This document shows positions 2,348 to 59,251 of a stretch of 64,000 nucleotides of DNA, piece after piece. Source of the DNA: Protonemura montana (taxonomy: Eukaryota; Arthropoda; Insecta; Plecoptera; Nemouridae); contig OX387608.1 of the NCBI GenBank assembly GCA_947568835.1, forward strand, positions 17,084,535-17,148,534, written 5' to 3'. Each line of letters begins with the position of its first letter. Position 1 is the first letter of the stretch. The notes under the pieces are model-generated. The model was given only the letters and a program-made list of their open reading frames with translations. It was not told where the DNA came from and ran no database searches. A program made the translations under genes and the position numbers.

Positions 2348-2958
2348 CTCGTAGGTTACTTACATTAAAATATCGTCACGTGTTTATCAATCGTTGAGGT
2401 AAACATTGATGGAGATTTTTTTGAGCATGAAAAGTCACACACGCGAGTTAACCTACAAGAAATATCGAAATTAAATTTCATATGACAGTGGCTCCACTTA
2501 ACGTGATGTTCCGGTACTCTGCATTTTTGTCGGTAAGGTAGTCATTTGGCGGCCATCTTTCACGCAGAGACTGTAACATTGACGTTCTGTCTCTACCTAG
2601 AACCTACACTCAACGGTTTAACATTAACGTTCTGTCTCTACCTAGAACCTGCACTCAACGGTTTAACATTAACGTTCTGTCTCTACCTAGAACCTGCACA
2701 CTCAACAGTTTAACATTAACGTTCTGTCTCTACCTAGAACCTGCACACACAACGGTTTAACATTAACGTTCTGTCTCTACCTAGAACCTGCCCACTCAAC
2801 GGTTTAACATTAACGTTCTGTCTCTACCTAGAACCTGCACACACAACGGTTTAACATTAACGTTCTGTCTCTACCTAGAACCTGCACACTCAACGGTTTA
2901 ACATTAACGTTGTCTCTACCTAGAACCTGCACACTCAACGGTTTAACATTAAAATGCT
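2348..2958 (+). mobile_element. Half of a foldback element with internal 45-47-bp array
   Basis: From CTCGTAGGTTA onward this locus matches the centre and right arm of the foldback element at 24138-24756: the AAACATTGATGGAGATTTTT centre, GTGGCTCCACTTAACGTGATG and GTCATTTGGCGGCCATCTTT. Here only one arm exists. The arm ends in about eight copies of a 45-47-bp unit (2567-2953: TAACATTAACGTTCTGTCTC ... ACTCAACGGTT), whereas the right arm of the other copy has one. The element is noncoding. Confidence 0.8.
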
Positions 2959-7207: not shown

Positions 7208-8636
7208 ACATACAATACAACGGTTATTTTTAAACCATGTTCAGAACCAAGATGGCGACCGTTGCTAGGATAAACAAACTCCCAGATCTCGACTGCTAGC
7301 CCACAAACTAAGCAAAGTAAATCGAGAAAGCTTTGAATAATTCAGCGAGTCGAGACCGTGAGGTCGTGGGTTCGAGGGTCTTTTGATTTAGTGCCCCACG
7401 GCGACTTGGTATATTGCTTGGGGAAGCCGCACAGGTATCCAAGTCGCCGTGGTTCGGGGCAGGTGAGTTATGTGATTGTTTTCACCTATCGATGATGGTG
7501 CCTATGAGCGGCAGTGGCGTGCGGCGCAACTACAAGCCTTGTTCTAACACCGGCAGAGCTGGGCTAAGATTTGCTAAATAAAGGCGCTAAATTTAAATAC
7601 ATTCTTCGAGGCATGCGTCGTGGCATCTGCAACTCATGCGTCAAAACGCGCCCAAAGTTTGTGAAGCCCTCGAGGGTCGCTGGTTCGAACCTCGTTATCC
7701 TCGCGCGGGTCCATGTCGCCCGGCGGCTTCCAGAGAGGAATCCTATGTCGGCCTGAGGGCTGTAAAGACGCCCACCTCTCTACCCCCTCCAACGCCCACA
7801 ATACGCATTGCGTGACGTCGCACAAGAAGCTGGGCTTTCAGGGCAAATACATCATTGATTATATTTGGATATAACTCAATTCCCAGGCATTAGATTTCAT
7901 TCAAATTTTAGCCATCTTTAGAACTGTGTACGCTTTACCTTTCGTTCAATTTTTATCTATTTCTATTCATGGAAAAAGTTTTTATGAGTATTTTTGTAAA
8001 ATTTTTCTTCAAAAAATCTAGAATCGTCGTCCCGTAAGAATCCGAGCGAATCTTCGAAGAGGTCAAAGATTCAGCTTTGTTTTTATCACAAAGAATCGTC
8101 TGAAGGAAGACCGAAAAGAAGACAAAGAAAAGCGCAGAATAATTGAAGATTTTCAAATGTAATAAAGACCAAGATTGCCAAGATGTGTCAACCTGGATAC
8201 CGGACTGATATCAAAGTTGATCGCTCGGATTCTTGTAGTGGCATTTTGTGTTCAACTTCATTTCAATTTGTTTAAACAGAAATAAAGCTCAACTAATCCG
8301 AGATGGAAGCTGAGCGATTGTTGTCCTTGTTTTACAAGCAGCCAAACAATGATGCAATGCACACAAGTACATAAAACCGCCTCTAAGTACACAGGGAAGT
8401 AATTAACACGTCTCCAAACAACGCATCAAGTTACCATGACAACATCCCACTCGGTGGAGGTGCCGGGTTACACGTCACCCCAAACCAGCGAAGTGACAAC
8501 ATTCCCCCCCCCCCCTACTACCACCCCCCTCCCCTCTCAGCTAGCATTAATATCAACGTCATCATCCAATACCAACCCTAGCAATTAACTGCCTGCTCTG
8601 AGATGCCTAAACCTCACACAGATTCCTGCCACGCAA
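7208..8636. other. Intergenic or intronic spacer with a hairpin and tRNA-like B box
   Basis: An inverted repeat has arms about 7392-7408 (GCCCCACGGCGACTTGG) and 7439-7460 (CCAAGTCGCCGTGG..CGGGGC). Near 7680, CTGGTTCGAACCTCG looks like a tRNA/SINE B box, followed by a GC-rich stretch to about 7800, perhaps a decayed SINE. A C-rich tract lies at 8500-8540. No gene was recognised. Confidence 0.5.
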
Positions 8637-9231
8637 AGTTGCTGTACTAACTTTCATCCCTCCGACCTCTCTCCCGAACAGAACTGGTCATGTGTATGAT
8701 GGTCACCCATCCAATATCTGACCCAGCGCAGTGTTGCTTAACTTTCATCCCTCCAACCTCTCACCCGAACAGAACTGGTCATGTGTATGATGGTCACCCA
8801 TCCAATACCTAACCCAGCGCAGTGTTGCTGAACTTTCATCCCTCCAACCTCTCACCCGAACAGAACTGGTCATGTGTATGATGGTCACCCATCCAATACC
8901 TGGCTCAGCGCAGTGTTGCTTAACTTTAATCTTCCAACCTCTTTCCCGAACAGAACTGGTCATGTGTATGATGGTCACCCATCCAATACCTGACTCAGCG
9001 CAGTGTTGCTTAACTTTCATCCCTCTAATCTCTCTCCCGAACAGAACTGATCATGTGCATGATGGTCAACCATCCAATACCTAACCCAGCGCAGTGTTGC
9101 TGAACTTTCATCCCTCCAACCTCTCACCCGAACAGAACTGGTCATGTGTATGATGGTCACCCATCCAATACCTGACCCAGCGCAGTGTTGCTTAACATCA
9201 GTGATCTCCAATACGCCAAACCATTCGGTAT
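8637..9231 (-). mobile_element. 5S-derived composite SINE, 91-bp module expanded
   Basis: On the minus strand the copy begins with a decayed head (CGAATGGTTTGGCG ... GATCACTGATGTTAAGCAAC). It then repeats a 91-bp module about six times and exits at GAAAGTTAGTACAGCAAC, the natural boundary to the SINE body, which is missing here. The module carries AAGTTAAGCAACACTGCGCT and GGTATTGGATGGGTGACC. These match the A box and start of the C box of the 5S rRNA internal Pol III promoter. Confidence 0.88.
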
Positions 9232-9870
9232 CCTCACAGAAACACAAACACATTTAGGTCTCTTAACAAAAGCAATAAAAAGGCCAACCCAACAAAGCTC
9301 CAAGATTTTAATAAACTAGGTAACAAATCACCCGAGCATCGGACATGTCCCACTGGAGTCCATTACAAGTACGCGGTGTCGACTTACCAATGCTCGATTC
9401 ACTCTCGATTCAGTGGGAGTCGTGGGACCCCTTGCTCTGGGAGAGGCGGGGAGGGGGACACGGGATCAAGGGATTGCAAACGATCTGGAGGAAGCAATAA
9501 CATTAGGGTTCCCAGGGGATAAGCAGCAGAGAAGAGCAGGGAAGAGCAGGGAAGAGCAGGAGGGAAGATCAGGGAAGAGGAAGTGTAAGACGGGCTAAGC
9601 AGACATTTCCTGTATCAACTATACGATCGTTGAAATGGCACTCGCAAGAAGACAGACGTGGATTTCGGAGCAATTTTAAAATTAAATTAGCATTATGAGT
9701 TTGCTAATTGGAATCAGGCTAAGTGTAGAGGGTTGTACGTAGAGGGGGGGGGGGGAGTGAAGAGAGGGGAAGTTTTGAAAGCAAGCACTCCGGTATTCAA
9801 AAAATAGATTTCTAAGCTGAATGGAAATTAAATAATAGGCAGGCAAACATATCATAACATAACATATTGA
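9232..9870. other. Spacer, purine-rich patches
   Basis: Contains a short 10-bp repeat (GAAGAGCAGG, 9531-9570) and a G-run near 9745-9757. No gene or known element was seen. Confidence 0.6.
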
Positions 9871-10385
9871 GAGGTTGGAGGGATGAAAGTTAAGCAACAC
9901 TGCGCTGAGTCAGGTATTGGATGGGTGACCATCATACACATGACCAGTTCTGTTCGGGAGAGAGGTTGGAGGGATGAAAGTTAAGTAACACTGCGCTGGG
10001 TCAGGTATTGGATGGGTGACCATCATACACATGACCAGTTCTGTTCGGGAGAGAGGTTGGAGGGATGAAAGTTAAGCAACACTGCGCTGGGTCAGGTATT
10101 GGTTAGGTGACTATTATACACATGACCAGTTCTGTTTGGGAGAGAGGCTGGAGGGATGAAAGTTAAGCAACACTGCGCTGTGTCAGGTATTGTATGGGTG
10201 ACCATCATACACATGACCAGTTCTGTTCGGGAGAGAGGTTGGAGGGATGAAAGTTAAGCAACACTGCGCTGTCATTGCGCTGTATTGGATGGGTGACCAC
10301 CGAACGGTTCGGCGTGCTGCTAACACCGGTCCTCGTGAGGTCACCCATCCAATACAAAACCCAGCACAATGTTGCTGAACTTCAC
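9871..10385 (+). mobile_element. 5S-SINE 91-bp array ending in a palindromic copy
   Basis: About four forward copies of the 91-bp 5S module. The last is truncated and joined at GGTGACC to the SINE head (ACCGAACGGTTCGGCGTGCT), which leads at 10339 into an inverted 5S module (GTCACCCATCCAATAC ... GTTGCTGAACTTC). The right end is therefore a hairpin of two opposed 5S modules around the head. It looks like a foldback or template-switch product. Confidence 0.85.
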
Positions 10386-11553: not shown

Positions 11554-12163
11554 GAAGTTAAGCAACACTGCGCTGGGTCAGGTATTGGATGGGTGACCAT
11601 CATACACATGACAAGTTCTGTTCGGGAAAGAGGTTGGAGCGATGAAAGTTAGTACAGCAACTTCACTCGCCTTGCTTATCAACCTTTCGACAGCAACTTC
11701 ACTCGCCTTGCTTATCAACCTCTCGACACCAACTTCACTCGCCTTGCTTATCAACCTCTCGACAGCAACTTCACTCGCCTTGCTTATCAACCTCTCGACA
11801 CCAACTTCACTCGCCTTGCTTATCAACCTCTCGACAATAACTTCACTCGCCTTGCTTATCAACCTCTCGACAGCAACTTCACTCGCCTTGCTTAGCAACC
11901 TCTCGACACCAACTTCACTCGCCTTGCTTATCAACCTCTCGAAAGCAACTTCACTCGCCTTGCTTATCAACCTCTCGACACCAACTTCACTCGCCTTGCT
12001 TATCAACCTCTCGACACCAACTTCACTCGTCTTGCTTATCAACCTCTCGACAGCATGGATTTGTGGAGGAATCCTGTTGTTCGCGTTGTACCGTCCTTCG
12101 GAAGGGACGTTAAGCCGGTGATCCCCTTGGTCTTCGACAGGAGTAGGCTACGTGCCGGCACCG
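11554..12163 (+). mobile_element. 5S-derived composite SINE with 36-bp expansion
   Basis: A forward copy missing its extreme head: GAAGTTAAGCAACACTGCGC, one 5S module, the junction GAAAGTTAGTACAGCAAC, then about eleven copies of a 36-bp unit (11652-12055; CAGCAACTTCACTCGCCTTG ... AACCTCTCGA), then the body GCATGGATTTGTGGAGGAAT, CCTTCGGAAGGGACGTTAAG and GGCTACGTGCCGGCACCG. The far 3' tail is absent. Here the 36-bp module is amplified and the 91-bp module is single. Confidence 0.92.
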
Positions 12164-13275
12164 TGTTCAATAATCGAAAAAACAGTAAAAAAATGGCGAG
12201 CTCATCGCCACTGTTGGCAAGTACCATTGTTAATTCTAAAATCGCTTGAGGAGGAAAACAAGATCGATCTCGCCGGCACCTCGTGCTCGGCACCTCGTGC
12301 TCGGCACCTAATTTCGTGCTTCATTTGCGCCGGCGCACTCGGCGGTCCACATTTGTTTTCAATTAATTAAAACGTGTGATTGCTCTACGCTTTGATCTCT
12401 AATATCGTCGAAACAAAGCCCGGCCCTTCGTGGATTGATTGCGAAGGAATGCAGGAGCAGGCAGCCATTTTGTAATCGCAGCTGGATTTCTCTTCAGGTA
12501 CATGACTTTCAAGTTTACATTTTTAATAATAATAATAATAATAATGAAATATATTTTATTCAAGGAACAATACATTACAAAGTAATGTTATTACTCAATA
12601 TTTCAATTAACCCGATGGCGCTTGCTGCTGTATTTTCCAAAAAACATCGGAAAAAAATAACTACAACTGAAATTATCGAAACAACATCGATTCATGTTTA
12701 TCAATCGTTGAAGTTAGCAATAATAAAGATTAATTGAGTTTAAACCAGTTTTAAATGCGAGTAATCTGCGAGAAATAACGACAAAGAAATATGTTAAAAC
12801 TGGAAGCGACGGTGTCTCCATCTTTTGGTACTAAACTTGCAGACAATTTAACACTGGCTTTGTGTCTCTTGAATGATTATAAACTCAATGTCGACTCAAT
12901 TACAATAACGCAGACCACCGCCTTGTGGAGCAAATTAAATTAGCACTTTCGATTACCGCGAGTTTCGGTTAATTGCTTTAGAGACGCGTTGCAAGGAAAC
13001 TTCGCGGCTTGAAAAATAAAACCCCAAGAAAATAACTTTCTTAATTAATTTCTTGTCAAACTTTCAGACACTGAGCGCTGCGATTTACGAGCGGACGTTT
13101 GGTGAACTAATTCAAGTCTTGTCCACCGCCGCCATTGACTCGTATTCACGTTGAATTACAGGTGGCAGTGATCACCCATCGCTTCTAAACATTCCATTAC
13201 TTTTCATTTCATCTTTTGTTTCAGAAGTTTTCGATTTTTGTAGCAAACATTTCCTTTTAAAAATAGATTGAGATT
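12164..13275. other. Unique spacer
   Basis: Contains a small GC-rich duplication (CACCTCGTGCTCGG, near 12276-12310) and an (AAT)n microsatellite near 12523-12545. No coding signal was recognised. Confidence 0.6.
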
Positions 13276-16392: not shown

Positions 16393-17549
16393 ACCATCAT
16401 AGGTGACCATCATACACATTACCATCATACACATGACCATCATACACATGACCATCATACACATGACCATCATACACATGACCATCATACACATGACCAT
16501 CATACACATGACCATCATACACATGACCATCATACACATGATCATCATACACATGACCATCATACACATGACCATCATACACATGACCATCATACACATG
16601 ACCATCATACACATGACCATCATACACATGACCATCATACACATGACCATCATACACATGACCATCATACACGTGACCATCATACACATGACCATCATAC
16701 ACATGACCATCATACACATGACCATCATACACATGACCATCATACACATGACCATCATACACATGACCATCATACACATGACCATCATACACATGACCAT
16801 CATACACATGACCATCATACACATGACCATCATACACATGACCATCATACACATGACCATCATACACATGACCATCATACACATGACCATCATACACATG
16901 ACCATCATACACATGACCATCATACACATGACCATCATAGACATGACCATCATACACATGACCATCATACACATGACCATCATACACATGACCATCATAC
17001 ACATGACCATCATACACATGGCCATCATACACATGACCATCATACACATGACCATCAAACACATGACCATCATACACATGACCATCATATACATGACCAT
17101 CATACACATGACCATCATACACATGGCCATCATATACATGACCATCATACACATGACCATCATACACGTGACCATCATACACATGACCATCAGACTTATG
17201 ACCATCATACACATGACCATCATACACATGACCATCATACACATGACCATCATACACATGACCATCATACACATGACCATCATACACATGACCATCATAC
17301 ACATGACCATCATTCACATGACCATCATACACATGACCATCATACACATGACCATCATACACATGACCATCATACACATGACCATCATACACATGACCAT
17401 CATACACATGACCATCATACACATGACCATCATACACATGACCATCATACACATGACCATCATTCACATGACCATCATACACATGACCATCATACACATG
17501 ACCATCATTCACATGACCATCATACACGTGACCATCATACACATGACCA
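16393..17549. repeat. 15-bp minisatellite derived from the 5S SINE
   Basis: About 77 copies of TGACCATCATACACA. The left edge retains GGTGACCATCATACACA as in the SINE. The right edge runs directly into SINE sequence (GACCAGTTCTGTTTGGGAGA). Scattered single-base variants occur. Long open frames in several phases (up to 397 codons) are artefacts of a unit divisible by three. Confidence 0.97.
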
Positions 17550-17587
17550 GTTCTGTTTGGGAGAGAGGTTGGAGGGATGAAAGTTGA
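17550..17587 (+). mobile_element. 5S-SINE remnant flanking the 15-bp array
   Basis: TTCTGTTTGGGAGAGAGG then TTGGAGGGATGAAAGTTGA is the SINE sequence that normally follows the single TGACCATCATACACATGACCA segment. It shows that the neighbouring array expanded in place within a SINE. Confidence 0.9.
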
Positions 17588-17592
17588 CAAAA

Positions 17593-17700
17593 ACCTAACC
17601 TAACCTAACCTAACCTAACCTAACCTAACCAAACCTAACCTAACCTAACCTAACCTATTCTAACCTAACCAAACCTAACCTAACCTAACAAAACCTCACC
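17593..17700. repeat. Interstitial (CCTAA)n / (TTAGG)n telomere-like tract
   Basis: About twenty pentamers CCTAA with a few interruptions (CCAAA, CCTATT). (TTAGG)n is the common arthropod telomere repeat. The pyrimidine-rich strand lies on the sense strand just before the exon at 17757, so it could add to the polypyrimidine context of that splice acceptor. Confidence 0.85.
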
Positions 17701-19954: not shown

Positions 19955-20167
19955 AATACCAGACCCAGCGCAGTGTTGCTTAACTTTCATCCCTCCAACC
20001 TCTCTCCCGAACAGAAGTGGTCATGTGTATGATGGTCACCCATCCAATACCTGACTCAGCGCAGTGTTGCTTAACTTTCATCCCTCCAACCTCTCTCCCG
20101 AACAGAACTGGTCATGTGTATGATGGTCACCCATACAATACCTGACCCAGCACAGTGTTGCTTAACT
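19955..20167 (-). mobile_element. 5S-SINE fragment, about two 91-bp modules
   Basis: Minus-strand modules with GTTAAGCAACAC ... GGATGGGTGACC. Both head and body are missing, and both ends cut within a module. Confidence 0.88.
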
Positions 20168-22423: not shown

Positions 22424-22807
22424 TCATATTTAAATTGCAAACGCTTGCAATGCGTGGGGTATTTTATTATTAACAACACTATAACCGTCTCAAAAATTGA
22501 TGCCTAAACGGGGACTCAAACCCCGATCTCCACCTGTCGCGGGTGTTGCTCTAACCAATTGAGCTACTTGGACCCCAATCTCCACCTGTCGCGGGTGTTG
22601 CTCTAACCAATTGAGCTACTTGAACCCCGATCTCCACCTGTCGCGGGTGTTGCTCTAACCAATTGAGCTACTTGAACCCCGATCTCCACCTGTCGCGGGT
22701 GTTGCTCTAACCAATTGAGCTACTTGAACCCCGATCTCCACCTGTCGCGGGTGTTGCTCTAACCAATTGAGCTACTTGGACACTGGCTTTTTATGACGAT
22801 TTTAGCG
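22424..22807 (-). mobile_element. tRNA-derived SINE with 52-bp tandem expansion
   Basis: On the minus strand: lead GTCTCA-poor start and CCAGTGTCCAAGTAGCTC, then five copies of a 52-bp 5'-tRNA unit, then an intact T arm (CGGGGTTTGAGTCCCCG), CATCAATTTTTGAGACGG and the 3' tail TTAATAATAAAATACC ... TTGCAAGCGTTTGCAATTTA. Internal junctions read GGGGTTCAAGTAGC or GGGGTCCAAGTAGC, so only the last copy has a complete T arm. Confidence 0.92.
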
Positions 22808-24137: not shown

Positions 24138-24756
24138 TAACACCGTTGAGTGCGCAGGTTCTAGGTAGAGACAGAACGTTAATGTTAAACCGTTGAGTGT
24201 GCAGGTTCTAGGTAGAGACAGAACGGTAATGTTAAACCGTTGAGTGTGCAGGCTCTAGGTAGAGACAGAACGTTAATGTTAAACCGTTGAGTGTGCAGGT
24301 TCTAGGTAGAGACAGAACGTTAATGTTAAACCGTTGAGTGTGCAGGTTCTAGGTAGAGACAGAACGTCAATGTTACAGTCTCTGAGTGAAAGATGGCCGC
24401 CAAATGACTACCTTACCGACAAAAATGCAGAGTACCGGAACATCACGTTAAGTGGAGCCACTGTCGTATGAAATTTAATTTCGATATTTCTCGTAGGTTA
24501 ACTAGCTTTTGAATATCGTTACGTGTATATCAATCGTTGAGGTAAACATTGATGGAGATTTTTTAAGCATGAAAAGTCACAAAAGCGAGTAACCTACGAG
24601 AAATATCGAAATTAAATTTCATACGACAGTGGCTCCACTTAACGTGATGTTCCGGTACTCTGCATTTTTGTCGGTAAGGTAGTCATTTGGCGGCCATCTT
24701 TTACGCAGAGACTGTTACATTGACGTTGAAACTCTACCTAGAACCTACACACAACG
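24138..24756. mobile_element. Foldback element with tandem repeats in one arm
   Basis: Arms of about 140 bp (24365-24502 and 24587-24725) are near-perfect inverted copies, including GATGGCCGCCAAATGACTAC and its complement, around about 85 bp of centre. The left arm is extended outward by about five copies of a 46-47-bp unit (ACCGTTGAGTGTGCAGGTTC ...). The right arm has a single diverged unit. The same element, as one arm plus centre, lies at 2348-2958. No coding capacity; a foldback-type MITE. Confidence 0.85.
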
Positions 24757-26365: not shown

Positions 26366-27172
26366 GTGACCATCATACACGTGACCATCATACACATGAC
26401 CATCATACACATGACCATCATAAACATGACCATCATACACACGACCATCATACACGTGACCATCATACACATGACCATCATACACATGACCATCACACAC
26501 ATGACTATCATACACATGACCATCATACACACGACCATCATACACATGACCATCATACACGTGACCATCATACACATGACCATCATACACATGACCATCA
26601 TACACATGATCATCATACACATGACCATCATACACATGACCATCATACACATGACCATCATACACATGACCATCATACACATGACCATCATACACATGAC
26701 CATCATACACATGACCATCATACACATGACCATCATACACATGACCATCATACACATGACCATCATACACATGACCATCATACACATGACCATCATACAC
26801 ATGACCATCATAAACATGACCATCATAAACATGACCATCATACACATGACCATCATACACATGACCATCATACACATGACCATCATACACATGACCATCA
26901 TACACATGACCATCATACACATGACCATCATACACATGACCATCATACACATGACCATCATACACATGACCATCATACACATGACCATCATACACATGAC
27001 CATCATACACATGACCATCATACACATGACCATCATACACATGACCATCATACACATGACCATCATACACATGACCATCATACACATGACCATCATACAC
27101 ATTACCATCATACACATGACCATCATACACATGACCATCATACACATGACTATCATACACATGACCATCATA
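26366..27172. repeat. 15-bp minisatellite, second locus, derived from the 5S SINE
   Basis: About 54 copies of TGACCATCATACACA. The right edge passes straight into the 3' part of the composite SINE (GGCTACGTGCCGGCACCGGG), so the modules normally between are deleted. Diverged copies (CACACGACC, TAAACATGACC) cluster in the left third, and the right two thirds are nearly uniform. Confidence 0.96.
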
Positions 27173-27302
27173 CGGCTACGTGCCGGCACCGGGTTTCCTC
27201 TCCTCCCTTCTAGGCTAGGTTAGATTCATCATCATCCACTCATTCACCGACGCCATTAGACCTGTGCCGCATGACCAGATGTCAAAACAGTGCTAAGTTT
27301 AA
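27173..27302 (+). mobile_element. 3' tail of the composite 5S SINE
   Basis: GGCTACGTGCCGGCACCGGG, CTAGGCTAGGTTAGATTCAT, CACTCATTCACCGACGCCAT and TGTCAAAACAGTGCTAAGTT match the tail of the copies at 56281-56980 and 58603-59251. Confidence 0.9.
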
Positions 27303-28782
27303 CTCAAGAAACTAAAAAAGGAATACTTTTATAAGCGATTTACAAATATAGATGGTTAATTTCCTTCTACAAAATCTTGAATGTTTTTGCTCTTCACTTT
27401 TGACTTAGGTAATTTATAAAATGTTTGAAGATCATGAATTGTATGTTGTTTTCTTATCCCAGCCAAACATTCTCACTGGAGTCAAGTCTATTACACAACT
27501 GTCACATGGTTCATTCCGTTCAAATCTTATAATAATTATGATGATTGTTTTGAATGCTCTGGTGTCTACTCGATGTCTAACTCAGTTGAATAAGTTTCTG
27601 TCATCTGAAAATACTTCACCAACAACCGCAATATCTACCTTCACAACCCACGGTCATAGCGAGGACATTTGTAAAATATATTAAATCTTATTTCAATTGC
27701 AAAAACTTGCAAAGTACAAAGTATTTCATTATTAAAAAACACTAATAAACTTTCAAAAATGTATAAAACTTAACTTTAAACTTGACTTGACCCATCGTCA
27801 GCTTTCTGTCAGAGTCTTCTGCCCAAAAGCATTAAAGATATCAAAGAGTTTAAATCCTTTACACAAAGGATAGGTACATGCAAAGATATCCATATGTCTT
27901 TACTTGGATATATTTATATTTATAAAAATATAGGCGTTTTAAAGCATGAGCGAATTCGACCAAAAGCAAATTCAATCTCGTGACGTTTTATGTCCAAAGC
28001 TTACTTTGATTGTTAACTTGTATGCAATTGTAATTTCTAAAAGTAAGTACACAGCATTTAATTAAGTTGACAAAGTTTAACCAAATATTAAACCTAAAAT
28101 ATTGAACTTTATCCTCGGACAATGTTTTTAAATAACTCAAGTAACGCAGATAATAAATCAAATACATAAACCTCTTCCTGAGCGACGTTGTTTCCAGACT
28201 GTCATGGTTATGTCAAGCATCTCGTTGCCACTAGCAACCAATTTGTTTGCCTTGTCAACAGCTGTTGCCAAGGAAAGAAGCTTCCCTAATTACTGGTAGT
28301 TTTAACAAATCTAGAAAGATACTAATTGGTACGATCAGCAAGATTCGGGGCTCGCGACTATTTCTGAACTGACAAACTGAACGTGATCTTTGTTTTCTCC
28401 CAAGAGACCGAGAACTGTTTCTCAGAGATTTTTAAATAACAAGAAGGCGGTGAAATTGACGGGCATTTTGTTGAAACTTCACTAATCTTACAAAGCGTTG
28501 TCTTTGTTTGTCGCTATTTCTTTGTTATCTAGATGTGTATTTTTATTTTTGACGATTCAACATTATTTAACTCTTCGAATGTAAGTAACAATAGAAAGAT
28601 TAGCGACCGACCATTTTGTCCACGTGGCCATTGAATTAACATCTCATTCCAGAGTTGCTACGATCTCGTTCATACGAGTCACCTCGGCCTCTTCCCCCCT
28701 CGTGGGAGTCCCTCATCCCAACCACAGCAATAACTGGAATATAAGTGTCCGGATAGCTCACACTCACTGCATCTCATCTCAT
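27303..28782. other. Unique AT-rich spacer with a decayed tRNA-SINE tail
   Basis: At about 27682-27790, TCTTATTTCAATTGCAAAAA ... TTTCATTATTAAAAAACACT resembles the 3' tail of the tRNA SINE on the minus strand, heavily diverged. The rest is unrecognised. Confidence 0.5.
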
Positions 28783-29614
28783 CATGTGAATTATGGTCAC
28801 CCATCCAATACCTGACCCAGCGCAGTGTTGACTAACTTTCATCCCTCCAACCTCTCTCCCGAACAGAACTGGTCATGTGTATGATGGTCACTCATCCAAT
28901 ACCTGACCCAGTGCAGTGTTGCTTAACTTTCATCCGTCCAACCTCTCTCCCGAACAGAACTGGTCATGTGTATGATGGTCACCCATCCAATACCTGACTC
29001 AGCGCAGTGTTGCTTAACTTTCATCCCTCCAACCTCTCTCCCGAACAGAACTGGTCATGTGTATGATGGTCACCCATCCAATACCTGACCCAGCGCAGTG
29101 TTGCTTAACTTTCATCACTCCAACCTCTCTCCCGAACAGAACTGGTCATGTGTATGATGGTCACTCATCCAATACCTGACCCAGCGCAGTGTTGCTTAAT
29201 TTTCATCCCTCCAACCTCTCTCCCGAACAGAACTGGTCATGTGTATGATGGTCACCCATCCAATACCTGACCCAGTGCAGTGTTGCTTAACTTTCATCCC
29301 TCCAACCTCTCTACCGAACAGAACTGGTCATGTGTATGATGGTCACCCATACAATACCTGACCCAGCGCAGTGTTGCTTAACTTTCATCCCTTCAACCTC
29401 TCTCCAGAACAGAACTGGTCATGTGTATGATGGTCACCCATACAATACCTGACCCAGTGCAGTGTTGCTTAACTTTCATCCCTCCAACCTCTCTCCCGAA
29501 CTGAACTGGTCATGTGTATGATGGTCACTTATCCAATAGTTGACCCAGCGCAGTGTTGCTTAACTTCGGTGATCTAACGAGAACCGGTGTTTCCAACACG
29601 ACAAACCGTTCGGT
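28783..29614 (-). mobile_element. 5S-SINE 91-bp array with intact head
   Basis: On the minus strand: head ACCGAACGGTTTGTCGTGTT ... CGGTTCTCGTTAGATCACCG, then about nine 91-bp 5S modules, ending inside a module at the left. It is followed on the genomic right by TTATAAATAAATAAATAAC. The SINE body is absent. Confidence 0.92.
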
Positions 29615-37467: not shown

Positions 37468-38470
37468 TCATTCCTCCAACCTCTCTCCCGAATAGAACTG
37501 GTCGTGTGTATGATGGTCACCCATTTAATAACTGACCCAGCGCAGTGTTGCTTAACTTTCATCCCTCCAACCTCTCTCCCAACAGAACTGGTCATGTGTA
37601 TAATGGTCACCATCCAATACCTGACCCAGCGCAGTGTTGCTTAACTTTCATCCCTCCAACCTCTCTCCCAAACAGAACTGGTCATGTGTATGATGGTCAC
37701 CCATCCAATACGGTGACCCAGCGCAGTTTTGCTTAACTTTCATCCCACCAACCTCTCTCCCAACAGAACTGGTCATGTATATGATGGTCACCCATCCAAT
37801 ACCTGACCCAGCGCAGTGTTGCTTAACTTTCATCCCTCCAACCTCTCTCCCAAACAGAACTGGTCATGTATATGATGGTCACCCATCCAATACCTGACCC
37901 AGCGCAGTGTTGCTTAACTTTCATCCCTCCAACCTCTCTCCCGAACAGAACTGGTCATGTGTATGACGGTCACCCATCCAATACCTGACCCAGCGCAGTG
38001 TTGCTTAACTTTCATCCCTCCAACCTCTCTCCCGAACAGAACTGGTCATGTGTATGATGGTCACCCATCCAATACCTGACCCAGCGCAGTGTTGCTTAAC
38101 TTTCATCCCTCCAACCTCTCTCCCGAACAGAACTGGTCATGTGTATGATGGTCACCCATCCAATACCTGACCCAGCGCAGTGTTGCTTAACTTTCATCCC
38201 TCCAACCTCTCTCCCGAACAGAACTGGTCATGTGTATGATGGTCACCCATCCAATACCTGACCCAGCGCAGTGTTGCTTAACTTTCATCCCTCCAACCTC
38301 TCTCCCGAACAGAACTGGTCATGTGTATGATGGTCACCCATCCAATACCTGACCCAGCGCAGTGTTGCTTAACTTTCATCCCTCCAACCTCTCTCCCGAA
38401 CAGAACTGGTCATGTGTATGATGGTCACCCATCCAATACCTGACCCAGCGCAGTGTTGCTTAACTTCGGT
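37468..38470 (-). mobile_element. 5S-SINE 91-bp array, about eleven modules
   Basis: On the minus strand CACCGAAGTTAAGCAACACT (end of head) is followed by about eleven 91-bp modules. The modules nearest the head are almost identical; those at 37468-37860 are more diverged, with small deletions. This polarity suggests growth from the head side. The SINE body is absent. Confidence 0.92.
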
Positions 38471-39736
38471 GCCACCAAACGTTGAAACAGAATGCACTTA
38501 ATATCCACGGCCCCAATTAAACCACTCAAGCAAACTGCATTACTTAGCGTTGATTAATACAATGTACTTAGCTCGGATAATTGGTTTGAATTTCATCAAG
38601 CATCGTAAATGCCCCGAAGCACTAATTATGCATTTGAAATAATGCATGTACTTATTGCTCTGTAATTGCTTGTAATAGAGGAAGTAATTGCTGTACTCGA
38701 CGGGTTTAAATCGAGTGCTCTGTGCCACTAACTTTACTAGAAATGTACCACAACTCTAGTTGGGCGCAATCAGACTCAACTTTTACAACCGAATTCTGCC
38801 AAGAAGCGACCCAGAAGTAAACATGTTGATCTTATGAAGACGTTATTTGTGAGAAGGGGTGGAGGAGGGAGGGGGGTTAAACGTGGGTGGGGGTGTAAGC
38901 GAAATTCCCTGTCGCTGTCGCTAAAATTCGATCAAAATATCAAAATATTAAAAACCGTTTTTTTCCTCGGAATTGAGACGCAACGCTCCCAGATGTTTTG
39001 ATATAATCTCACGGCATTTTAATTAACTAATTATGCGTCCCCCTCCCCCTAGAGCCGGGGGGGGGGGGGGAGGGGTGGGACACGTAATTGGTTTCAACCT
39101 CGTCGAGTTTTGACAGAGAACTTTGCCGCAAAACGCAGATAAACTCCCAAGTAAAGGCCGATATTAAGAATCAGGACATGCAGACTTTTTTCTTCCTGAT
39201 TTCTGATTCCTGATTTTTAAACGCGATCCCGATTAATAATTTCTTCTTGTATGCAGAACCCGCGGCTCGGCACGGGATAATCGAATCAATTTCAAACTTT
39301 TCCCGGCTTTTCCTCGTTTTCCGACCGCATTCTAATCTGGAAAGCACACAGCGAGGATTTTCAGCCGCCGATCGGCAGCTTTTTTTGTGCGCGCTTTTTC
39401 CGAAACATGCGCCGCGATCGGAAAATCTTTTCAAAGTTATTCGTCAATTAAAAGAAAATTTCGCTCCGATATGCAACAAGCGGTTTTCCATTTTCCCGGC
39501 GGCGCAGTTTCCCTGGAAAATTCAACCCGGCCACTGTTTTCTTAGCGCCGAATTCAACGCGAGTTGCGTTCTTTTACAATAAATCAACCAAAAACTTAAC
39601 ATTTTCATACAATTTCTAGCTCAATCAAAATTTTTGTATTATAATCTTGATTGATTTATTGCCTTGTGGTGTTTAACGACGCATTGATTCAACAACGAAC
39701 CCTGTAACTCTTGTCTGACGATTACTTTTCAGTCAA
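38471..39736. other. Intron sequence, including a possible alternative exon
   Basis: A G14 run lies at 39057-39070. A GC-rich open frame preceded by a good 3' splice site starts at 39257 (separate entry). The rest is unrecognised. Confidence 0.55.
39257..39582 (+). other. Speculative alternative 3' terminal exon
   Basis: TTCTTCTTGTATGCAG ends at 39256. If joined to the linker exon (phase 1, G|AA gives Glu), the frame stays open for 108 codons to TAA at 39580-39582, which overlaps an AATAAA hexamer (39579-39584). The product would replace the C345C domain. The peptide matches nothing I recognise, so this may be chance in a GC-rich patch or an old element. Only structure, not homology, supports it. 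Confidence 0.15.
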
Positions 39737-42700
39737 AGCCAATAGACCAGTGTCACAGAGACAGTCAATAGACCAGTGTCACAGAGACAGCCAATAGACC
39801 AGTGTCACAGAGACAGCCAATAGACCAGTGTCACAGAGACAGCCAATAGACCAGTGTCACAGAGACAGTCAATAGACCAGTGTCACAGAGACAGCCAATA
39901 GACCAGTGTCACAGAGACAGCCAATAGACCAGTGTCACAGAGACAGCCAATAGACCAGTGTCACAGAGACAGCCAATAGACCAGTGTCACAGAGACAGTC
40001 AATAGACCAGTGTCACAGAGACAGCCAATAGACCAGTGTCACAGAGACAGTCAATAGACCAGTGTCACAGAGACAGCCAATAGACCAGTGTCACAGAGAC
40101 AGCCAATAGACCAGTGTCACAGAGACAGTCAATAGACCAGTGTCACAGAGACAGCCAATAGACCAGTGTCACAGAGACAGGCAATAGACCAGTGTCACAG
40201 AGACAGCCAATATACCAGTGTCACAGAGACAGTCAATAGACCAGTGTCACAGAGACAGTCAATAGACCAGTGTCACAGAGACAGCCAATAGACCAGTGTC
40301 ACAGAGACAGTTAATAGACCAGTGTCACAGAGACAGTCAATAGACCAGTGTCACAGAGACAGCCAATAGACAGTGTCACAGAGACAGCCAATAGACCAGT
40401 GTCACAGAGACAGTCAATAGACCAGTGTCACAGAGACAGCCAATAGACAGTGTCACAGAGACAGTCAATAGACCAGTGTCACAGAGACAGCCAATAGACC
40501 AGTGTCATAGAGACAGCCAATAGACCAGTGTCACAGAGACAGTCAATAGACCAGTGTCACAGAGACAGCCAATAGACCAGTGTCACAGAGACAGCCAATA
40601 GACCAGTGTCACAGAGACAGTCAATAGACCAGTGTCACAGAGACAGTCAATAGACCAGTGTCACAGAGACAGCCAATAGACCAGTGTCACAGAGACAGCC
40701 AATAGACCAGTGTCACAGAGACAGGCAATAGACCAGTGTCACAGAGACAGCCTATAGACCAGTGTCACAGAGACAGCCTATAGACCAGTGTCACAGAGAC
40801 AGTTAATAGACCAGTGTCACAGAGACAGCCAATAGACCAGTGTCACAGAGACAGTCAATAGACCAGTGTCACAGAGACAGCCAATAGACCAGTGTCACAG
40901 AGACAGTTAATAGACCAGTGTCACAGAGACAGTCAATAGACCAGTGTCACAGAGACAGCCAATAGACAGTGTCACAGAGACAGCCAATAGACCAGTGTCA
41001 CAGAGACAGTCAATAGACCAGTGTCACAGAGACAGCCAATAGACAGTGTCACAGAGACAGCCAATAGACCAGTGTCACAGAGACAGTCAATAGACCAGTG
41101 TCCCAGAGACAGCCAATAGACCAGTGTCACAGAGACAGCCAATAGACCAGTGTCACAGAGACAGCCAATAGACCAGTGTCACAGAGACAGCCAATAGACC
41201 AGTGTCACAGAGACAGCCAATAGACCATGTCACAGAGACAGCCAATAGACCAGTGTCACAGAGACAGCCAATAGACCATGTCACAGAGACAGCCAATAGA
41301 CCAGTGTCACAGAGACAGCCAATAGACCAGTGTCACAGAGACAGCCAATAGACCAGTGTCATAGAGACAGCCAATAGACCAGTGTCACAGAGACAGCCAA
41401 TAGACCAGTGTCACAGAGACAGCCAATAGACCAGTGTCACAGAGACAGCCAATAGACCAGTGTCACAGAGACAGTCAATAGACCAGTGTCACAGAGACAG
41501 TCAATAGACCAGTGTCACAGAGACAGCCAATAGACCAGTGTCACAGAGACAGTCAATAGACCAGTGTCACAGAGACAGTCAATAGACTAGTGTCACAGAG
41601 ACAGCCAATAGACCAGTGTCACAGAGACAGTCAATAGACCAGTGTCACAGAGATAGCCAATAGACCAGTGTCACAGAGACAGTCAATAGACCAGTGTCAC
41701 AGAGACAGCCAATAGACAGTGTCACAGAGACAGCCAATAGACCAGTGTCACAGAGACAGTCAATAGACCAGTGTCACAGAGACAGCCAATAGACAGTGTC
41801 ACAGAGACAGCCAATAGACCAGTGTCACAGAGACAGTCAATAGACCAGTGTCCCAGAGACAGTTAATAGACCAGTGTCACAGAGACAGCCAATAGACCAG
41901 TGTCACAGAGACAGCCAATAGACCAGTGTCACAGAGACAGCCAATAGACCAGTGTCACAGAGACAGTCAATAGACTAGTGTCACAGAGACAGCCAATAGA
42001 CCAGTGTCACAGAGACAGTCAATAGACCAGTGTCACAGAGACAGTCAATAGACCAGTGTCACAGAGACAGTCAATAGACCAGTGTCACAGAGACAGCCAA
42101 TAGACCAGTGTCACAGAGACAGCCAATAGACCAGTGTCACAGAGACAGCCAATAGACCAGTGTCACAGAGACAGTCAAGAGACCAGTGTCACAGAGACAG
42201 TTAATAGACCAGTGTCACAGAGACAGCCAATAGACCAGTGTCACAGAGACAGCCAATAGACCAGTGTCACAGAGACAGTCAATAGACCAGTGTCACAGAG
42301 ACAGCCAATAGACCAGTGTCACAGAGACAGCCTATAGACCAGTGTCACAGAGACAGCCAATAGACCAGTGTCACAGAGACAGCCAATAGACCAGTGTCAC
42401 AGAGACAGTCAATAGACCAGTGTCACAGAGACAGCCAATAGACCAGTGTCATAGAGACAGCCAATAGACCAGTGTCACAGAGACAGTCAATAGACCAGTG
42501 TCACAGAGACAGCCAATAGACCAGTGTCACAGAGACAGCCAATAGACCAGTGTCACAGAGACAGCCAATAGACCAGTGTCACAGAGACAGCCAATAGACC
42601 AGTGTCACAGAGACAGCCAATAGACCAGTGTCACAGAGACAGGCAATAGACCAGTGTCACAGAGACAGCCTATAGACCAGTGTCACAGAGACAGCCTATA

Positions 42701-44431
42701 GACCAGTGTCACAGAGACAGTTAATAGACCAGTGTCACAGAGACAGCCAATAGACCAGTGTCACAGAGACAGTCAATAGACCAGTGTCACAGAGACAGCC
42801 AATAGACCAGTGTCACAGAGACAGGCAATAGACCAGTGTCACAGAGACAGTCAATAGACCAGTGTCACAGAGACAGTCAATAGACCAGTGTCACAGAGAC
42901 AGTCAATAAACCAGTGTCACAGAGACAGTCAATAGACCAGTGTCACAGAGACAGCCAATAGACCAGTGTCACAGAGACAGTCAATAGACCAGTGTCACAG
43001 AGACAGTCAATAGACCAGTGTCACAGAGACAGCCAATAGACCAGTGTCACAGAGACAGCCAATAGACCAGTGTCACAGAGACAGCCAATAGACCAGTGTC
43101 ACAGAGACAGCCAATAGACCAGTGTCACAGAGACAGCCAATAGACCAGTGTCACAGAGACAGTCAATAGACCAGTGTCACAGAGACAGCCAATAGACCAG
43201 TGTCACAGAGACAGTCAATAGACCAGTGTCACAGAGACAGCCAATAGACCAGTGTCACAGAGACAGTCAATAGACCAGTGTCACAGAGACAGCCAATAGA
43301 CCAGTGTCACAGAGACAGTCAATAGACCAGTGTCACAGAGACAGCCAATAGACCAGTGTCACAGAGACAGTCAATAGACCAGTGTCACAGAGACAGTCAA
43401 TAGACCAGTGTCACAGAGACAGCCAATAGACCAGTGTCACAGAGACAGTCAATAGACCAGTGTCACAGAGACAGCCAATAGACCAGTGTCACAGAGACAG
43501 TCAATAGACCAGTGTCACAGAGACAGCCAATAGACCAGTGTCACAGAGACAGTCAATAGACCAGTGTCACAGAGACAGTCAATAGACCAGTGTCACAGAG
43601 ACAGTCAATAGACCAGTGTCACAGAGACAGCCAATAGACCAGTGTCACAGAGACAGCCAATAGACCAGTGTCATAGAGACAGCCAATAGACCAGTGTCAC
43701 AGGGACAGCCAATAGACCAGTGTCACAGAGACAGCCAATAGACCAGTGTCACAGAGACAGTCAATAGACCAGTGTCACAGAGACAGCCAATAGACCAGTG
43801 TCATAGAGACAGCCAATAGACCAGTGTCACAGGGACAGCCAATAGACCAGTGTCACAGAGACAGCCAATAGACCAGTGTCACAGGGACAGCCAATAGACC
43901 AGTGTCACAGAGACAGTCAATAGACCAGTGTCACAGAGACAGTCAATAGACCAGTGTCACAGAGACAGCCAATAGACCAGTGTCACAGAGACAGTCAATA
44001 GACCAGTGTCACAGAGACAGCCAATAGACCAGTGTCACAGAGACAGCCAATAGACCAGTGTCACAGAGACAGCCAATAGACCAGTGTCACAGAGACAGCC
44101 AATAGACCAGTGTCACAGAGACAGCCAATAGACCAGTGTCACAGAGACAGCCAATAGACCAGTGTCACAGAGACAGCCAATAGACCAGTGTCACAGAGAC
44201 AGCAAATAGACCAGTGTCACAGAGACAGTCAATAGACCAGTGTCACAGAGACAGTCAATAGACCAGTGTCACAGAGACAGTCAATAGACCAGTGTCACAG
44301 AGACAGTCAATAGACCAGTGTCACAGAGACAGCCAATAGACCAGTGTCACAGAGACAGCCAATAGACCAGTGTCACAGAGACAGTCAATAGACCAGTGTC
44401 ACAGAGACAGTCAATAGACCAGTGTCACAGA
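39737..44431. repeat. 26-bp minisatellite, about 180 copies
   Basis: Unit CAGTGTCACAGAGACAGCCA then ATAGAC, with C/T/G variants (AGCCAATAG, AGTCAATAG, AGGCAATAG, AGTTAATAG, AGCCTATAG) and 25-bp deletion copies (TAGACAGTG). Paired deletion copies 77 bp apart recur at 40367/40444, 40963/41040 and 41713/41790, so whole blocks have been duplicated. The plus-strand unit contains CCAAT. Confidence 0.97.
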
Positions 44432-45249: not shown

Positions 45250-45468
45250 CATCCAATACCTGACTCAGCGCAGTGTTGCTTAACTTTCATCCCTTCAACC
45301 TCTCTCCCGAACAGAACTGGTCGTGTGTATGATGGTCACCCATCCAATACCTGACCCAGAGCAGTGTTGCTTAACTTTCATCCCACCAACCTCTCTCCTA
45401 AACTGATCCAGCCAGCGCATGGCGGTCACCCATCTAATACGGTAACCCAGCGCAGTGTTGCTTAACCC
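45250..45468 (-). mobile_element. 5S-SINE fragment with an older-looking module
   Basis: Two and a half minus-strand modules. The one at about 45385-45468 reads GGATG-like box then GGTGACCGCCATGCGCTGGC instead of GGTGACCATCATACACATG. GGTGACCGCC is closer to true 5S rRNA, so this module may keep an ancestral state without the 15-bp direct-repeat segment. Confidence 0.8.
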
Positions 45469-55214: not shown

Positions 55215-55775
55215 ACCGCGACAGGTGAAGATCGGGGTCCAAGTAGCTCAATTGGTTAGAGCAACACCCGCGACAGGTGGAGATCGGGGTCCAAGTAGCT
55301 CAATTGGTTAGAGCAACACCCGCGACAGGTGGAGATCGGGGTCCAAGTAGCTAAATTGGTTAGAGCAACACACTCGACAGGTGGAGATCGGGGTCCAAGT
55401 AGCTCAATTGGTTAGAGCAACACCCGCGACAGGGGGAGATCGGGGTCCAAGTAGCTCAATTGGTTAGAGCAACACCCGCGACAGGTGGAGATCGGGGTCC
55501 AAGTAGCTCAATTGGTTAGAGCAACACCCGCGACAGGTGGAGATCGGGGTCCAAGTAGCTCAATTGGTTAGAGCAACACTCGTGACAGGTGGAGATCGGG
55601 GTCCAAGTAGCTAAATTGGTTAGAGCAACACCCGCGACAGGTGGAGATCGGGGTCCAAGTAGCTCAATGGGTCAGAGCAACACTCGTGACAGGTGGAGAT
55701 CGGGGTTCGAGTCCCCGTTTGGTCATCAATTATTGAGACGTTTATATTGTTGTTAATAATAAAATATCACAATGT
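55215..55775 (+). mobile_element. tRNA-derived SINE with 52-bp tandem expansion
   Basis: About ten copies of a 52-bp unit (GTCCAAGTAGCTCAATTGGT ... GGAGATCGGG). The last continues into an intact T arm (GGGGTTCGAGTCCCCG), TTTGGTCATCAATTATTGAG and the 3' tail TTGTTGTTAATAATAAAATA. Every unit has the Pol III A box (TAGCTCAATTGG). Only the last has the complete B box (GGTTCGAGTCC). The usual SINE lead is replaced by the end of the 34-bp array. Confidence 0.93.
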
Positions 55776-56280: not shown

Positions 56281-56980
56281 TTATTTATTTGTGGTGTTTA
56301 ACTTAGCACTGTTTTGACATCTGGCCGTGTGGCACTGGTCTAATGGCGTCAGTGAATGAGTGGATGATGATGAACCTAACCTAGCCTAGAAGGGAGGAGG
56401 GGAAACCCGGTGCCGGCACGTAGCCTACTCATGTCGAAGAGCACCAAGGTGACCACCGGCTTAACGTCCCTTCCGAAGGACGGTACAACGCGAACAACAG
56501 GATTCCTCCACAAATCCATGCTGTCGAGAGGTTGATAAGCAAGGCGAGTGAAGTTGCTGTACTAACTTTCATCCCTCCAACCTCTCTCCCGAACAGAACT
56601 GGTCATGTGTATGATGGTCACCCATCCAATACCTGACCCAGCGCAGTGTTGCTTAACTTTCATCCCTCCAACCTCTCTCCCGAACAGAACTGGTCATGTG
56701 TATGATGGTCACCCATCTAATACCTGACCCAGCGCAGTGTTGCTTAACTTTCATCCCTCCAACCTCTCTCCCGAACAGAACTGGTCATGTGTATGATGGT
56801 CACCCATCTAATACCTGACCCAGCGCAGTGTTGCTTAACTTTCATCCCTCCAACCTCTCTCCCGAACAGAACTGGTCATGTGTATGATGATCACCCATCC
56901 AAAACCTGATTCAGCACAGTGTTGCTTAACTTCGGTGATCTCATGAGAACCGTTGTTTCCAACACGCCAAACCGTTCGGT
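56281..56980 (-). mobile_element. Near-complete 5S-derived composite SINE
   Basis: Reading the minus strand: head ACCGAACGGTTTGGCGTGTT, GAGATCACCGAAGTTAAGCA, four 91-bp 5S modules, the junction GAAAGTTAGTACAGCAACTT, one 36-bp module, GCATGGATTTGTGGAGGAAT, GTCCTTCGGAAGGGACGTTA, GTGCCGGCACCGGGTTTCC, CACTCATTCACCGACGCCAT, GTCAAAACAGTGCTAAGTTA and a tail ACACCACAAATAAATA. The 5S-like part identifies a SINE3-type element; the body is unrelated to 5S. An unexpanded copy would be about 430 bp. Confidence 0.93.
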
Positions 56981-58511: not shown

Positions 58512-58602
58512 GTGAGTAAACTAACTTTAAACGAGTATCAGAGTCAACAGGCAAGTCCATTGACATTCTAAACTCTAGAGTACCGAACTAGAGTTAATAC
58601 CC

Positions 58603-59251
58603 AAGTTAAGCAACACTGCGCTGGGTCACCGTATTGGATGGGTGACCATCATACACATGACCAGTTCTGTTCGGGAGAGAGGTTGGAGGGATGAAAGTTA
58701 AGCAACAACTTCACTCGCCTTGCTTATCAACCTCTCGACAGCAACTTCACTCGCCTTGCTTATCAACCTCTCGACAGCAACTTCACTCGCCTTGCTTATC
58801 AACCTCTCGACAGCAACGTCACTCGCCTTGCTTATCAACCTCTCGACACCAACTTCACTCGCCTTGCTTATCAACCTCTCGACAGCAACTTCACTCGCCT
58901 TGCTTATCAACCTCTCGACAGCAACTTCACTCGCCTTGCTTATCAACCTCTCGACAGCAACTTCACTCGCCTTGCTTATCAACCTCTCGACAGCAACTTC
59001 ACTCGCCTTGCTTACCAACCTCTCGACAGCATAGATTTGTGGAGGAATCCTGTTGTTCCCGTTGTACCGTCCTTCGGAAGGGACGTTAAGCCGGTGGTCC
59101 CCTTGGTCTTCGACAGGAGTAGGCTACGTGCCGGCACCGGGTTTCCCCTCCTCCCTTCTAGGCTAGGTTAGGTTCATCATCATCCACTCATTCACCGACG
59201 CCATTAGACCAGTGCGGCATGGCCAGATGTCAAAACAGTGCTAAGTTAAAC
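58603..59251 (+). mobile_element. 5S-derived composite SINE with 36-bp expansion
   Basis: A forward copy in the last intron: AAGTTAAGCAACACTGCGCT, one 5S module, then GAAAGTTAAGCAAC joined to AACTTCACTCG, nine to ten 36-bp units (about 58700-59030), the body (TTCGGAAGGGACGTTAAGCC) and the full tail to CAGTGCTAAGTTAAAC. The junction GTTAAGCAACAACTTC is a hybrid of the 5S start and the AGTTAGTACAGCAACTTC boundary, evidence of recombination between these two similar segments. Confidence 0.93.

What the first reader, a model, noticed from the sequence alone, without database searches (positions are those of the whole stretch)
56281..56980. One SINE, three minisatellites: each array period equals the distance between a pair of 6-bp direct repeats in the SINE
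In the composite 5S SINE, AAGTTA occurs at the 5S start (GAAGTTAAGCAAC) and again 91 bp later (GAAAGTTAGTACAGC). TGACCA occurs twice 15 bp apart (TGACCATCATACACATGACCA region). ACAGCA occurs twice 36 bp apart. The window contains arrays of exactly these periods: 91 bp (8637, 9871, 19955, 28783, 37468, 45250, 56281 and other loci), 15 bp (16393, 26366) and 36 bp (11652, 58700). In each the SINE flanks or edges are still attached. Direct reading supports in-place expansion by slippage or unequal recombination at short repeats. That this is a general route of minisatellite birth in this genome is inference.
Basis: partly seen in the sequence, partly recalled or inferred. Interest (0 to 1): 0.85.

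Follow-up and report, generated by a model that had tools for sequence, protein, structure and literature searches.

The report
Jumping-gene minisatellites born at short repeats
One small jumping gene in this genome keeps turning parts of itself into tandem-repeat arrays at short matching words in its own sequence, but the arrays examined look about as old as the insertion itself, so they were probably made while the gene was being copied in, or inherited, rather than by later stuttering of the chromosome.

Summary
The three repeat pairs are real. In the single-copy SINE consensus AAGTTA recurs at 91 bp, TGACCA at 15 and ACAGCA at 36, and arrays of these periods occur in the window and genome-wide: 25,920, 6,675 and 2,742 array junctions. 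A random segment has such a repeat with P=0.0019. Of four other pairs tested, 26 bp forms one array, 39 bp a few short ones, 69 and 90 bp none: the repeats are permissive, not sufficient. Simple in-place birth does not fit most arrays sampled. Of 50 multi-unit 91-bp copies, 10 are truncated inside the first unit and lack the left repeat; one has a 16-bp target-site duplication. Arrays of three or more units share a private change at 1 of 3,086 sites against about 2.5% unit divergence; dimers at 6 of 1,159. Dimers mix two old unit types, 10 of 16 discordant. The 15- and 36-bp arrays tend to sit at the truncated 5' end. Best reading: arrays form at or before insertion at short repeats, then are inherited and remodelled. 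One clear in-place birth exists (26 bp). A second element makes 52-bp arrays with 2 bp of homology.

The parts
56281..56980 (-). 5S-headed SINE with four 91-bp units (consensus 1-139 | 49-139 | 49-139 | 49-427); array 56563-56932
58599..59251 (+). SINE copy starting at consensus 45 with a 36-bp array (58706-59031) and tail to 412; the first junction GTTAAGCAACAACTTC looks like a fused AGCAAC junction
11554..12167 (+). SINE copy starting at consensus 48 with a 36-bp array (11654-12055), ending at 304
16393..17585 (+). 15-bp array (16404-17549) at the 5' edge, followed by consensus ~87-144 only
26366..27319 (+). 15-bp array (26367-27173) starting at consensus 87, joined to SINE tail 283-427
8636..9229 (-). 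91-bp array, six units, tail missing
9869..10345 (+). 91-bp array without tail, followed by a 92->1 SINE junction at 10298/10299
19955..20167 (-). 91-bp array fragment with no SINE flank (50-139 | 49-139 | 49-80)
28782..29614 (-). 91-bp array, about nine units, 5' head present, no tail
37468..38471 (-). 91-bp array, 11 units, neither head nor tail
45250..45466 (-). 91-bp array fragment, no SINE flank
55216..55725 (+). 52-bp array of a tRNA-like element (counter-example: 2 bp boundary identity)
22501..22778 (-). second 52-bp tRNA-like array sharing a 61-bp 3' flank (90%) with the first

Best explanation
A family of 5S-headed SINEs repeatedly turns internal segments into minisatellites whose boundaries are 6-7 bp direct repeats in the element. 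Shown: the boundaries, the very unequal use of the pairs, and that most 91-bp arrays sampled are as old as the insertion or older. Inferred: the arrays are made while SINE RNA is being copied into DNA. The growing cDNA end, carrying one direct repeat, re-pairs with the other copy of that repeat on the same or another SINE RNA and copies the segment again, so the array ends up at the (often truncated) 5' end. The 91-bp form has become a heritable internal VNTR that moves with the element, and also within a larger inverted-repeat element. Unequal exchange or slippage in the chromosome then remodels arrays, and occasionally starts one in place (26 bp).
For: Boundaries. Insertion with the array already present: L014 starts at consensus 101 inside its first unit, carries 7-8 units and has a 16-bp TSD with one mismatch (score 14; control 99% quantile 8.65). 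L098 starts at 90, holds 91- and 36-bp units and has a 12-bp TSD with one mismatch (score 10, no control in that call; control 99% quantile 7). L051 and L018 score 8, below the quantile. 10 of 16 multi-unit 91-bp copies that start in 44-139 start beyond the left repeat (L068 and L050 dropped because head sequence lies upstream); 8 of these 10 reach consensus 398 or more. Timing: shared private differences 6 of 1,159 sites in 13 dimers, 0 of 692 in 8 trimers and 1 of 2,394 in 28 longer arrays, against 23, 9 and 29 expected if arrays arose uniformly after insertion (site 70 left out). Different source molecules: site 70 (G/A, also polymorphic in single copies, 19 G to 8 A) is discordant in 10 of 16 independent dimers, P 6e-10 at 5% divergence, 5e-7 at 10%. 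End-coupling: 6 of 7 15-bp arrays begin at 84-102 against 6 of 89 other copies (p 7e-6), and 16 of 30 36-bp arrays begin at 136-169 against 2 of 89 (p 6e-10).
Against: RNA folding of the consensus shows no stem that would stall reverse transcriptase at 88 or 148. TSDs are weak or missing in the second sample, rich in array-bearing copies: 2 of 25 scored 7 or more, against 24 of 48. In gibbon LAVA, cell-based de novo insertions showed no VNTR change and DNA-level remodelling was concluded (PMC4432496, passages). Stutter on a single RNA would not give mixed units, so jumps between molecules or inherited arrays are needed. 3'-truncated arrays (19955, 37468, 45250) are not simple target-primed products. 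Dimers share more private changes than longer arrays (6 of 1,159), so some dimers did form later. The 36-bp loci were mostly picked through exact consensus matches, so their lack of fixed differences (0 in 25 arrays) proves little.
Confidence: 0.5

Rival explanations
1. Inherited VNTR, as in SVA/LAVA. The arrays arose rarely at the direct repeats in a few source elements by DNA-level slippage; later copies inherited multi-unit RNAs and were 5'-truncated at random. No duplication happens at insertion.
For: Explains mixed unit types, near-equal within- and between-locus unit distance (0.043 against 0.049 for 61 arrays), and TSD-flanked truncated arrays. Array-bearing units also move inside a larger inverted-repeat element.
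Against: Does not by itself predict that 15- and 36-bp arrays sit at the 5' end of the copy, unless truncation inside long arrays is simply common. Source loci with a full head, 36-bp array and tail are rare in the sample: of 30 36-bp arrays only four begin at consensus 25 or less. All four G/A orders occur in dimers, which needs several source dimers.
Confidence: 0.3
2. In-place replication slippage or unequal exchange on single chromosomal copies (the Haber-Louis model, the first reader's view).
For: Junctions at 6-7 bp repeats. The 26-bp array L115 with a non-consensus base in all 27 junction matches. L017, whose two units share private changes. Slight adjacency excess.
Against: Multi-unit copies lacking the left repeat; few shared private mutations; discordant dimers.
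Confidence: 0.13
3. DNA-repair capture: pieces of existing arrays or cDNA are copied into subtelomeric breaks by template switching or end joining, which gives arrays truncated at both ends without TSDs.
For: Tail-less arrays in the window. 71 of 74 mapped 36-bp arrays lie within 4 Mb of a contig end, against 37% expected (exact-match places on contigs of known length). Few TSDs.
Against: Tail-bearing copies with TSDs exist. Does not explain why the 5' end coincides with the amplified segment.
Confidence: 0.07

Closest known systems
Minisatellite birth at short flanking direct repeats (Haber and Louis 1998; Taylor and Breden 2000; Alu minisatellites of Jurka and Gentles 2006), as described in PMC6947457 and PMC3389668 (passages and one section read; the originals not read)
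   Same: A motif flanked by 5-10 bp direct repeats inside a transposable element becomes the unit.
   Different: There the duplication is placed in the chromosome. Here most 91-bp arrays sampled date from insertion or before, and 15- and 36-bp arrays tend to sit at the 5' end of the copy.
VNTR-composite retrotransposons SVA/LAVA (PMC4432496, passages)
   Same: A non-autonomous retroelement carries an internal VNTR; microhomology shapes the units.
SINE-derived satellites of squamates (PMC10702118, passages) and the limpet PcH-sat from Nin-SINE (PMC11121367, passages)
   Same: Parts of SINEs become tandem arrays.
   Different: The term 'direct repeat' occurs in neither main text; here one SINE yields several alternative units at thousands of junctions.
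Partial Alu repeated next to a full Alu: 136 human cases (PMC3389668 section 13)
   Same: Duplication of about 90 bp at the 5' end of a SINE.
   Different: Explained there by recombination at an endonuclease site; here the join is at internal repeats.

Membership tests
5S-derived SINE | 5S rRNA-like head | tested here: met
   RF00001 at 56860-56980 (55.5 bits) and 29494-29614 (46.6 bits), gathering 38; the other window copies did not reach the threshold
5S-derived SINE | Dispersed copies with target-site duplications | tested here: met
   8,689 anchor matches genome-wide; TSD score 7 or more in 24 of 48 tail-bearing copies, 10 of 48 above the control 99% quantile; only 2 of 25
5S-derived SINE | Pol III transcription and LINE partner sharing the tail | not tested
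   no LINE search made; core domain resembles Nin-DC from recall only
Direct-repeat minisatellite (Haber-Louis) | Unit bounded by a short direct repeat in the single-copy parent | tested here: met
   15, 36 and 91 bp, and 26 and 39 bp
Direct-repeat minisatellite (Haber-Louis) | First duplication occurs in the chromosome at a single-copy locus | tested here: not met
   for most arrays sampled; met for L115 and probably L017
VNTR-composite retrotransposon (SVA/LAVA-like) | Internal VNTR transmitted with the element | tested here: inconclusive
   L014 with TSD and truncation inside the array supports it; transmission against formation at insertion not separated
VNTR-composite retrotransposon (SVA/LAVA-like) | SINE-R, Alu-like and VNTR modules of hominoids (modules as recalled and named in PMC4432496) | tested here: not met
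   module is 5S head plus another core; no direct comparison with SVA sequence was run

The most novel reading that the evidence does not exclude
A reverse transcriptase makes minisatellites the way telomerase makes telomeres: it copies a short window of SINE RNA bounded by two direct repeats, re-pairs the new DNA end with the far repeat and copies again, dozens of times, at insertion sites near chromosome ends. The three windows (91, 15 and 36 nt) would be three alternative repeat-synthesis templates in one RNA.
Probability: 0.25. Interest if true: 0.8.

Novelty: new variant of a known kind. Interest (0 to 1): 0.55.

Why it matters
How a minisatellite is born is hard to see once the single-copy ancestor is lost. 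Here one known parent sequence gave thousands of array junctions, with single copies still present, so birth rates per direct-repeat pair, age at birth and link to insertion can be counted. The result separates 'where' (short direct repeats, as already published) from 'when' (mostly at insertion or inherited, not later, in the sample). If the RNA-templated version holds, retroelements write tandem repeats directly.

Tried and rejected
RNA-fold stall sites: no signal at 88 or 148 (at 49 the score was in the 85th percentile). Linkage between site 70 and tail variants, meant to separate template switching from inheritance, was uninformative because single copies show no linkage either. Phase of 15-bp array starts: one search suggested a tight cluster at 86-92; reading the edges showed one at a fetch edge (L008, dropped), one at about 96 (L084) and one with a head piece (L007), so I withdrew that claim and the p-values for it. 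A second check found four wrong starts in the comparison list: L054, L081 and L068 (chance or 92->1 pieces before the true start) and L050 (head remnant upstream); hold the corrected counts, which replace 12 of 50, 7 of 89 and 3 of 89. The window's 26-bp array at 39737-44431 is not shown to be the CAGTGC pair; its match to the SINE is weak. No paper on 5S-SINE minisatellites at direct repeats was seen in the listings (open-licence library only).

Rows dropped before counts: L001 (same as window); L002-L008 (picked by similarity) and L059-L063 (four of the five share one element) from the timing count; site 70 from the timing count; L129 (same paralogue as L128, 96.4% over 1,124 bp) from the dimers; L009 and L121 (third base at site 70) and L008, L089 and L091 (selected otherwise) from the dimers: with these five the count would be 13 of 21 discordant. 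L106 and L110 (start not reached) from the 36-bp starts. L102, also at a fetch edge, was kept, which works against the claim. Three exact 36-bp places on C14 (contig length not known to me) from the contig-end count.

Full report
What was asked. The finding says that one SINE gave three kinds of minisatellite, each with a period equal to the distance between two 6-bp direct repeats in the SINE, by in-place expansion.

Setting. The window is G000:C11:17084535-17148534 of an unnamed 258-Mb genome in 34 contigs, 1.7 Mb from the end of an 18.9-Mb contig. No species name is given by the tools. The window is packed with tandem repeats (48 TRF rows, some overlapping).

The element. Anchor CTGTTGTTCGCGTTGTACCGTCC (up to 2 mismatches) has 8,689 matches genome-wide, reversed control 0. 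I aligned nine single-copy loci and merged the result by hand with the window copy into a 429-bp consensus: 5S-like head (Rfam), a conserved core, and a CGTTAAACACCACAAATAAAT tail. TSD scores of 7 or more occur in 24 of 48 tail-bearing copies, 10 of 48 above the 99% control quantile, so this is a SINE by structure. The core looks like the Nin-DC domain from recall only.

The repeats. The consensus has 17 pairs of exact repeats of 6 bp or more within 200 bp; shuffles give 11 on average. Among them are the three named. Over 48,927 possible segments of 10-150 bp, 0.188% have 6 bp or more of boundary identity, so the match of three array classes to three pairs is not chance. AAGTTA and the pair AGCAAC (95 bp) belong to one gapped homology, AAGTTA(GTAC)AGCAAC, which may help explain why the 91-bp pair is used most (inference).

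Prediction test. I counted junctions genome-wide (up to 2 mismatches, reversed controls 0): 91 bp 25,920, 15 bp 6,675, 36 bp 2,742, and 277 array 3' edges for 36 bp at up to 3 mismatches. Four further pairs: 90 bp (TCGACAG, 7 bp) 0; 39 bp (TAGGCTA, 7 bp) 6 matches at five loci (L116 has three units); 69 bp 0; 26 bp (CAGTGC) 27 matches, all in one locus. The other ten pairs within 200 bp were not searched genome-wide. The repeats predict where arrays can start, but rates differ by orders of magnitude, and longer identity does not mean more arrays.

Flanks. A dynamic-programming alignment that allows jumps on the consensus shows that the arrays at 19955, 37468 and 45250 have no SINE flank and several others lack the tail. 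So 'still attached in each' is wrong.

Test 1, truncation. In the C1 anchor sample plus window, 10 of 50 multi-unit 91-bp elements start between 55 and 139, beyond the left AAGTTA, with no head remnant upstream (L068 and L050, first counted too, have head sequence). A single copy truncated there cannot slip between two AAGTTA. L014 (start 101, 7-8 units) has a 16-bp TSD with one mismatch; L051 and L018 score 8, below the 99% control quantile; L098 (start 90) has a 12-bp TSD with one mismatch. Later deletion could explain truncation without TSDs, not L014.

Test 2, timing. In the arrays of the C1 anchor sample and window all units share a private change at 6 of 1,159 sites in 13 dimers, 0 of 692 in 8 trimers and 1 of 2,394 in 28 longer arrays, while units differ from the consensus by 4.0, 2.7 and 2.4% and tails by 6.3, 4.1 and 4.6% (site 70 excluded). 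Uniform births after insertion would give about 23, 9 and 29. In a looser count (80% of units) 61 91-bp arrays hold 7 fixed changes, five of them at site 70. Within-array and between-locus distances are 0.043 and 0.049 for 61 91-bp arrays, and 0.020 and 0.022 for 25 36-bp arrays. Adjacent units are only slightly more alike than shuffled ones. Most of these arrays thus formed at or before insertion, then drifted, with some local growth. For 36-bp arrays the absence of fixed differences (0 in 25) is biased, because most loci were found by exact consensus matches.

Test 3, one or many source molecules. Site 70 is G or A in single copies (19 to 8) and in units. Of 16 independent dimers (two scored units) 10 are discordant, P 6e-10 if units were copies of one molecule with 5% later divergence. 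The site does not look hypermutable: the + arms of L060 and L061 (loci 95.8% identical over 4,664 bp) read AGGGGGGGGA and AGGGGGGGA, though their - arms differ. So the units of a dimer come from different molecules, or from an old mixed source.

Test 4, position. 6 of 7 15-bp arrays begin at 84-102 against 6 of 89 other copies (p 6.6e-6); 16 of 30 36-bp arrays begin at 136-169 against 2 of 89 (p 6.3e-10). For 36-bp arrays starting inside the unit, 6 of 10 start in its first nine positions (p 0.02). For 91-bp arrays, 6 of 16 truncated starts lie at 44-52 (p 0.002). The aligner can miss up to about 9 bp at an edge; searches show the edges. Chromosomal slippage gives no reason for this link with the 5' end; a process acting at the end of the growing cDNA does.

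Limits. RNA folding does not show stall sites at 88 or 148. TSDs score 7 or more in only 2 of 25 copies of the second sample. LAVA insertions in cells kept their VNTR (PMC4432496, passages). I cannot separate duplication at insertion from inheritance of multi-unit RNAs for the 91-bp class; both are 'not later in place'.

In-place births do occur. L115 (C16:304600-306100) has a 26-bp array with SINE on both sides and one non-consensus base in all 27 junction matches. L017 (two units, TSD score 11) shares two private changes apart from site 70.

Not general. Two 52-bp arrays in the window belong to a tRNA-Ser-like element (3,424 matches up to 3 mismatches to its 3' part). Of 12 loci read, several are near-palindromes with inverted flanks. 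Its array boundary has 2 bp of identity. 92->1 junctions of the SINE (L012, L024, L068, window 10298) show no usable homology; L012 has a 12-bp TSD outside it.

Spread by DNA. Five inverted pairs of array-bearing SINE on C1 (L059-L063) were fetched; four of them (L060-L063) share interior sequence at 93-96% identity. So arrays also travel inside a larger inverted-repeat element.

Known or new. Short direct repeats as seeds, also inside Alu, are in print (PMC6947457 and PMC3389668; originals not read). VNTR-bearing retroelements are in print (PMC4432496). New here is the scale of one parent with several alternative units, and the evidence on timing and position.

Noticed in passing
L059-L063 (C1:8.95, 20.98, 22.42, 26.09, 23.32 Mb): Inverted pairs of array-bearing SINE a few kb apart; L060-L063 share a common interior (93-96% identity). 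The two arms differ in unit number (about 10 and 13 in L060). No ORF of 120 aa or more in L059 or L060.
   Followed up: partly
window 22501-22778 and 55216-55725; L135-L146: tRNA-Ser-like element with inverted flanks (L138, L139 and L141 are near-palindromes) and 52-bp arrays whose junction cuts the T-arm (B-box) region; 3,424 matches to its 3' part genome-wide.
   Followed up: partly
window 2574-2952 and 24142-24375: Same 47-bp minisatellite in opposite orientation; one flank is shared (269- and 197-bp blast blocks at 92 and 97%, the second partly array), the other differs.
   Followed up: partly
window 39737-44431: 26-bp array of about 181 units, weakly like SINE 358-386, next to a SINE-tail fragment (39654-39694) in the other orientation.
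   Followed up: partly
L012, L024, L068, window 10298: SINE positions 1-92 joined 92->1 with no usable homology; L024 has six such units in tandem.
   Followed up: partly
   Followed up: no
36-bp arrays, genome-wide: 71 of 74 exact-match places lie within 4 Mb of a contig end, against 37% expected; the listing holds only the first 100 of 277 places.
   Followed up: partly
L090 3' side; window 17592-17700: A CATGG-type repeat begins where SINE CATGG ends in L090; (AACCT)22, a TTAGG-type repeat, follows the 15-bp array copy in the window.
   Followed up: no
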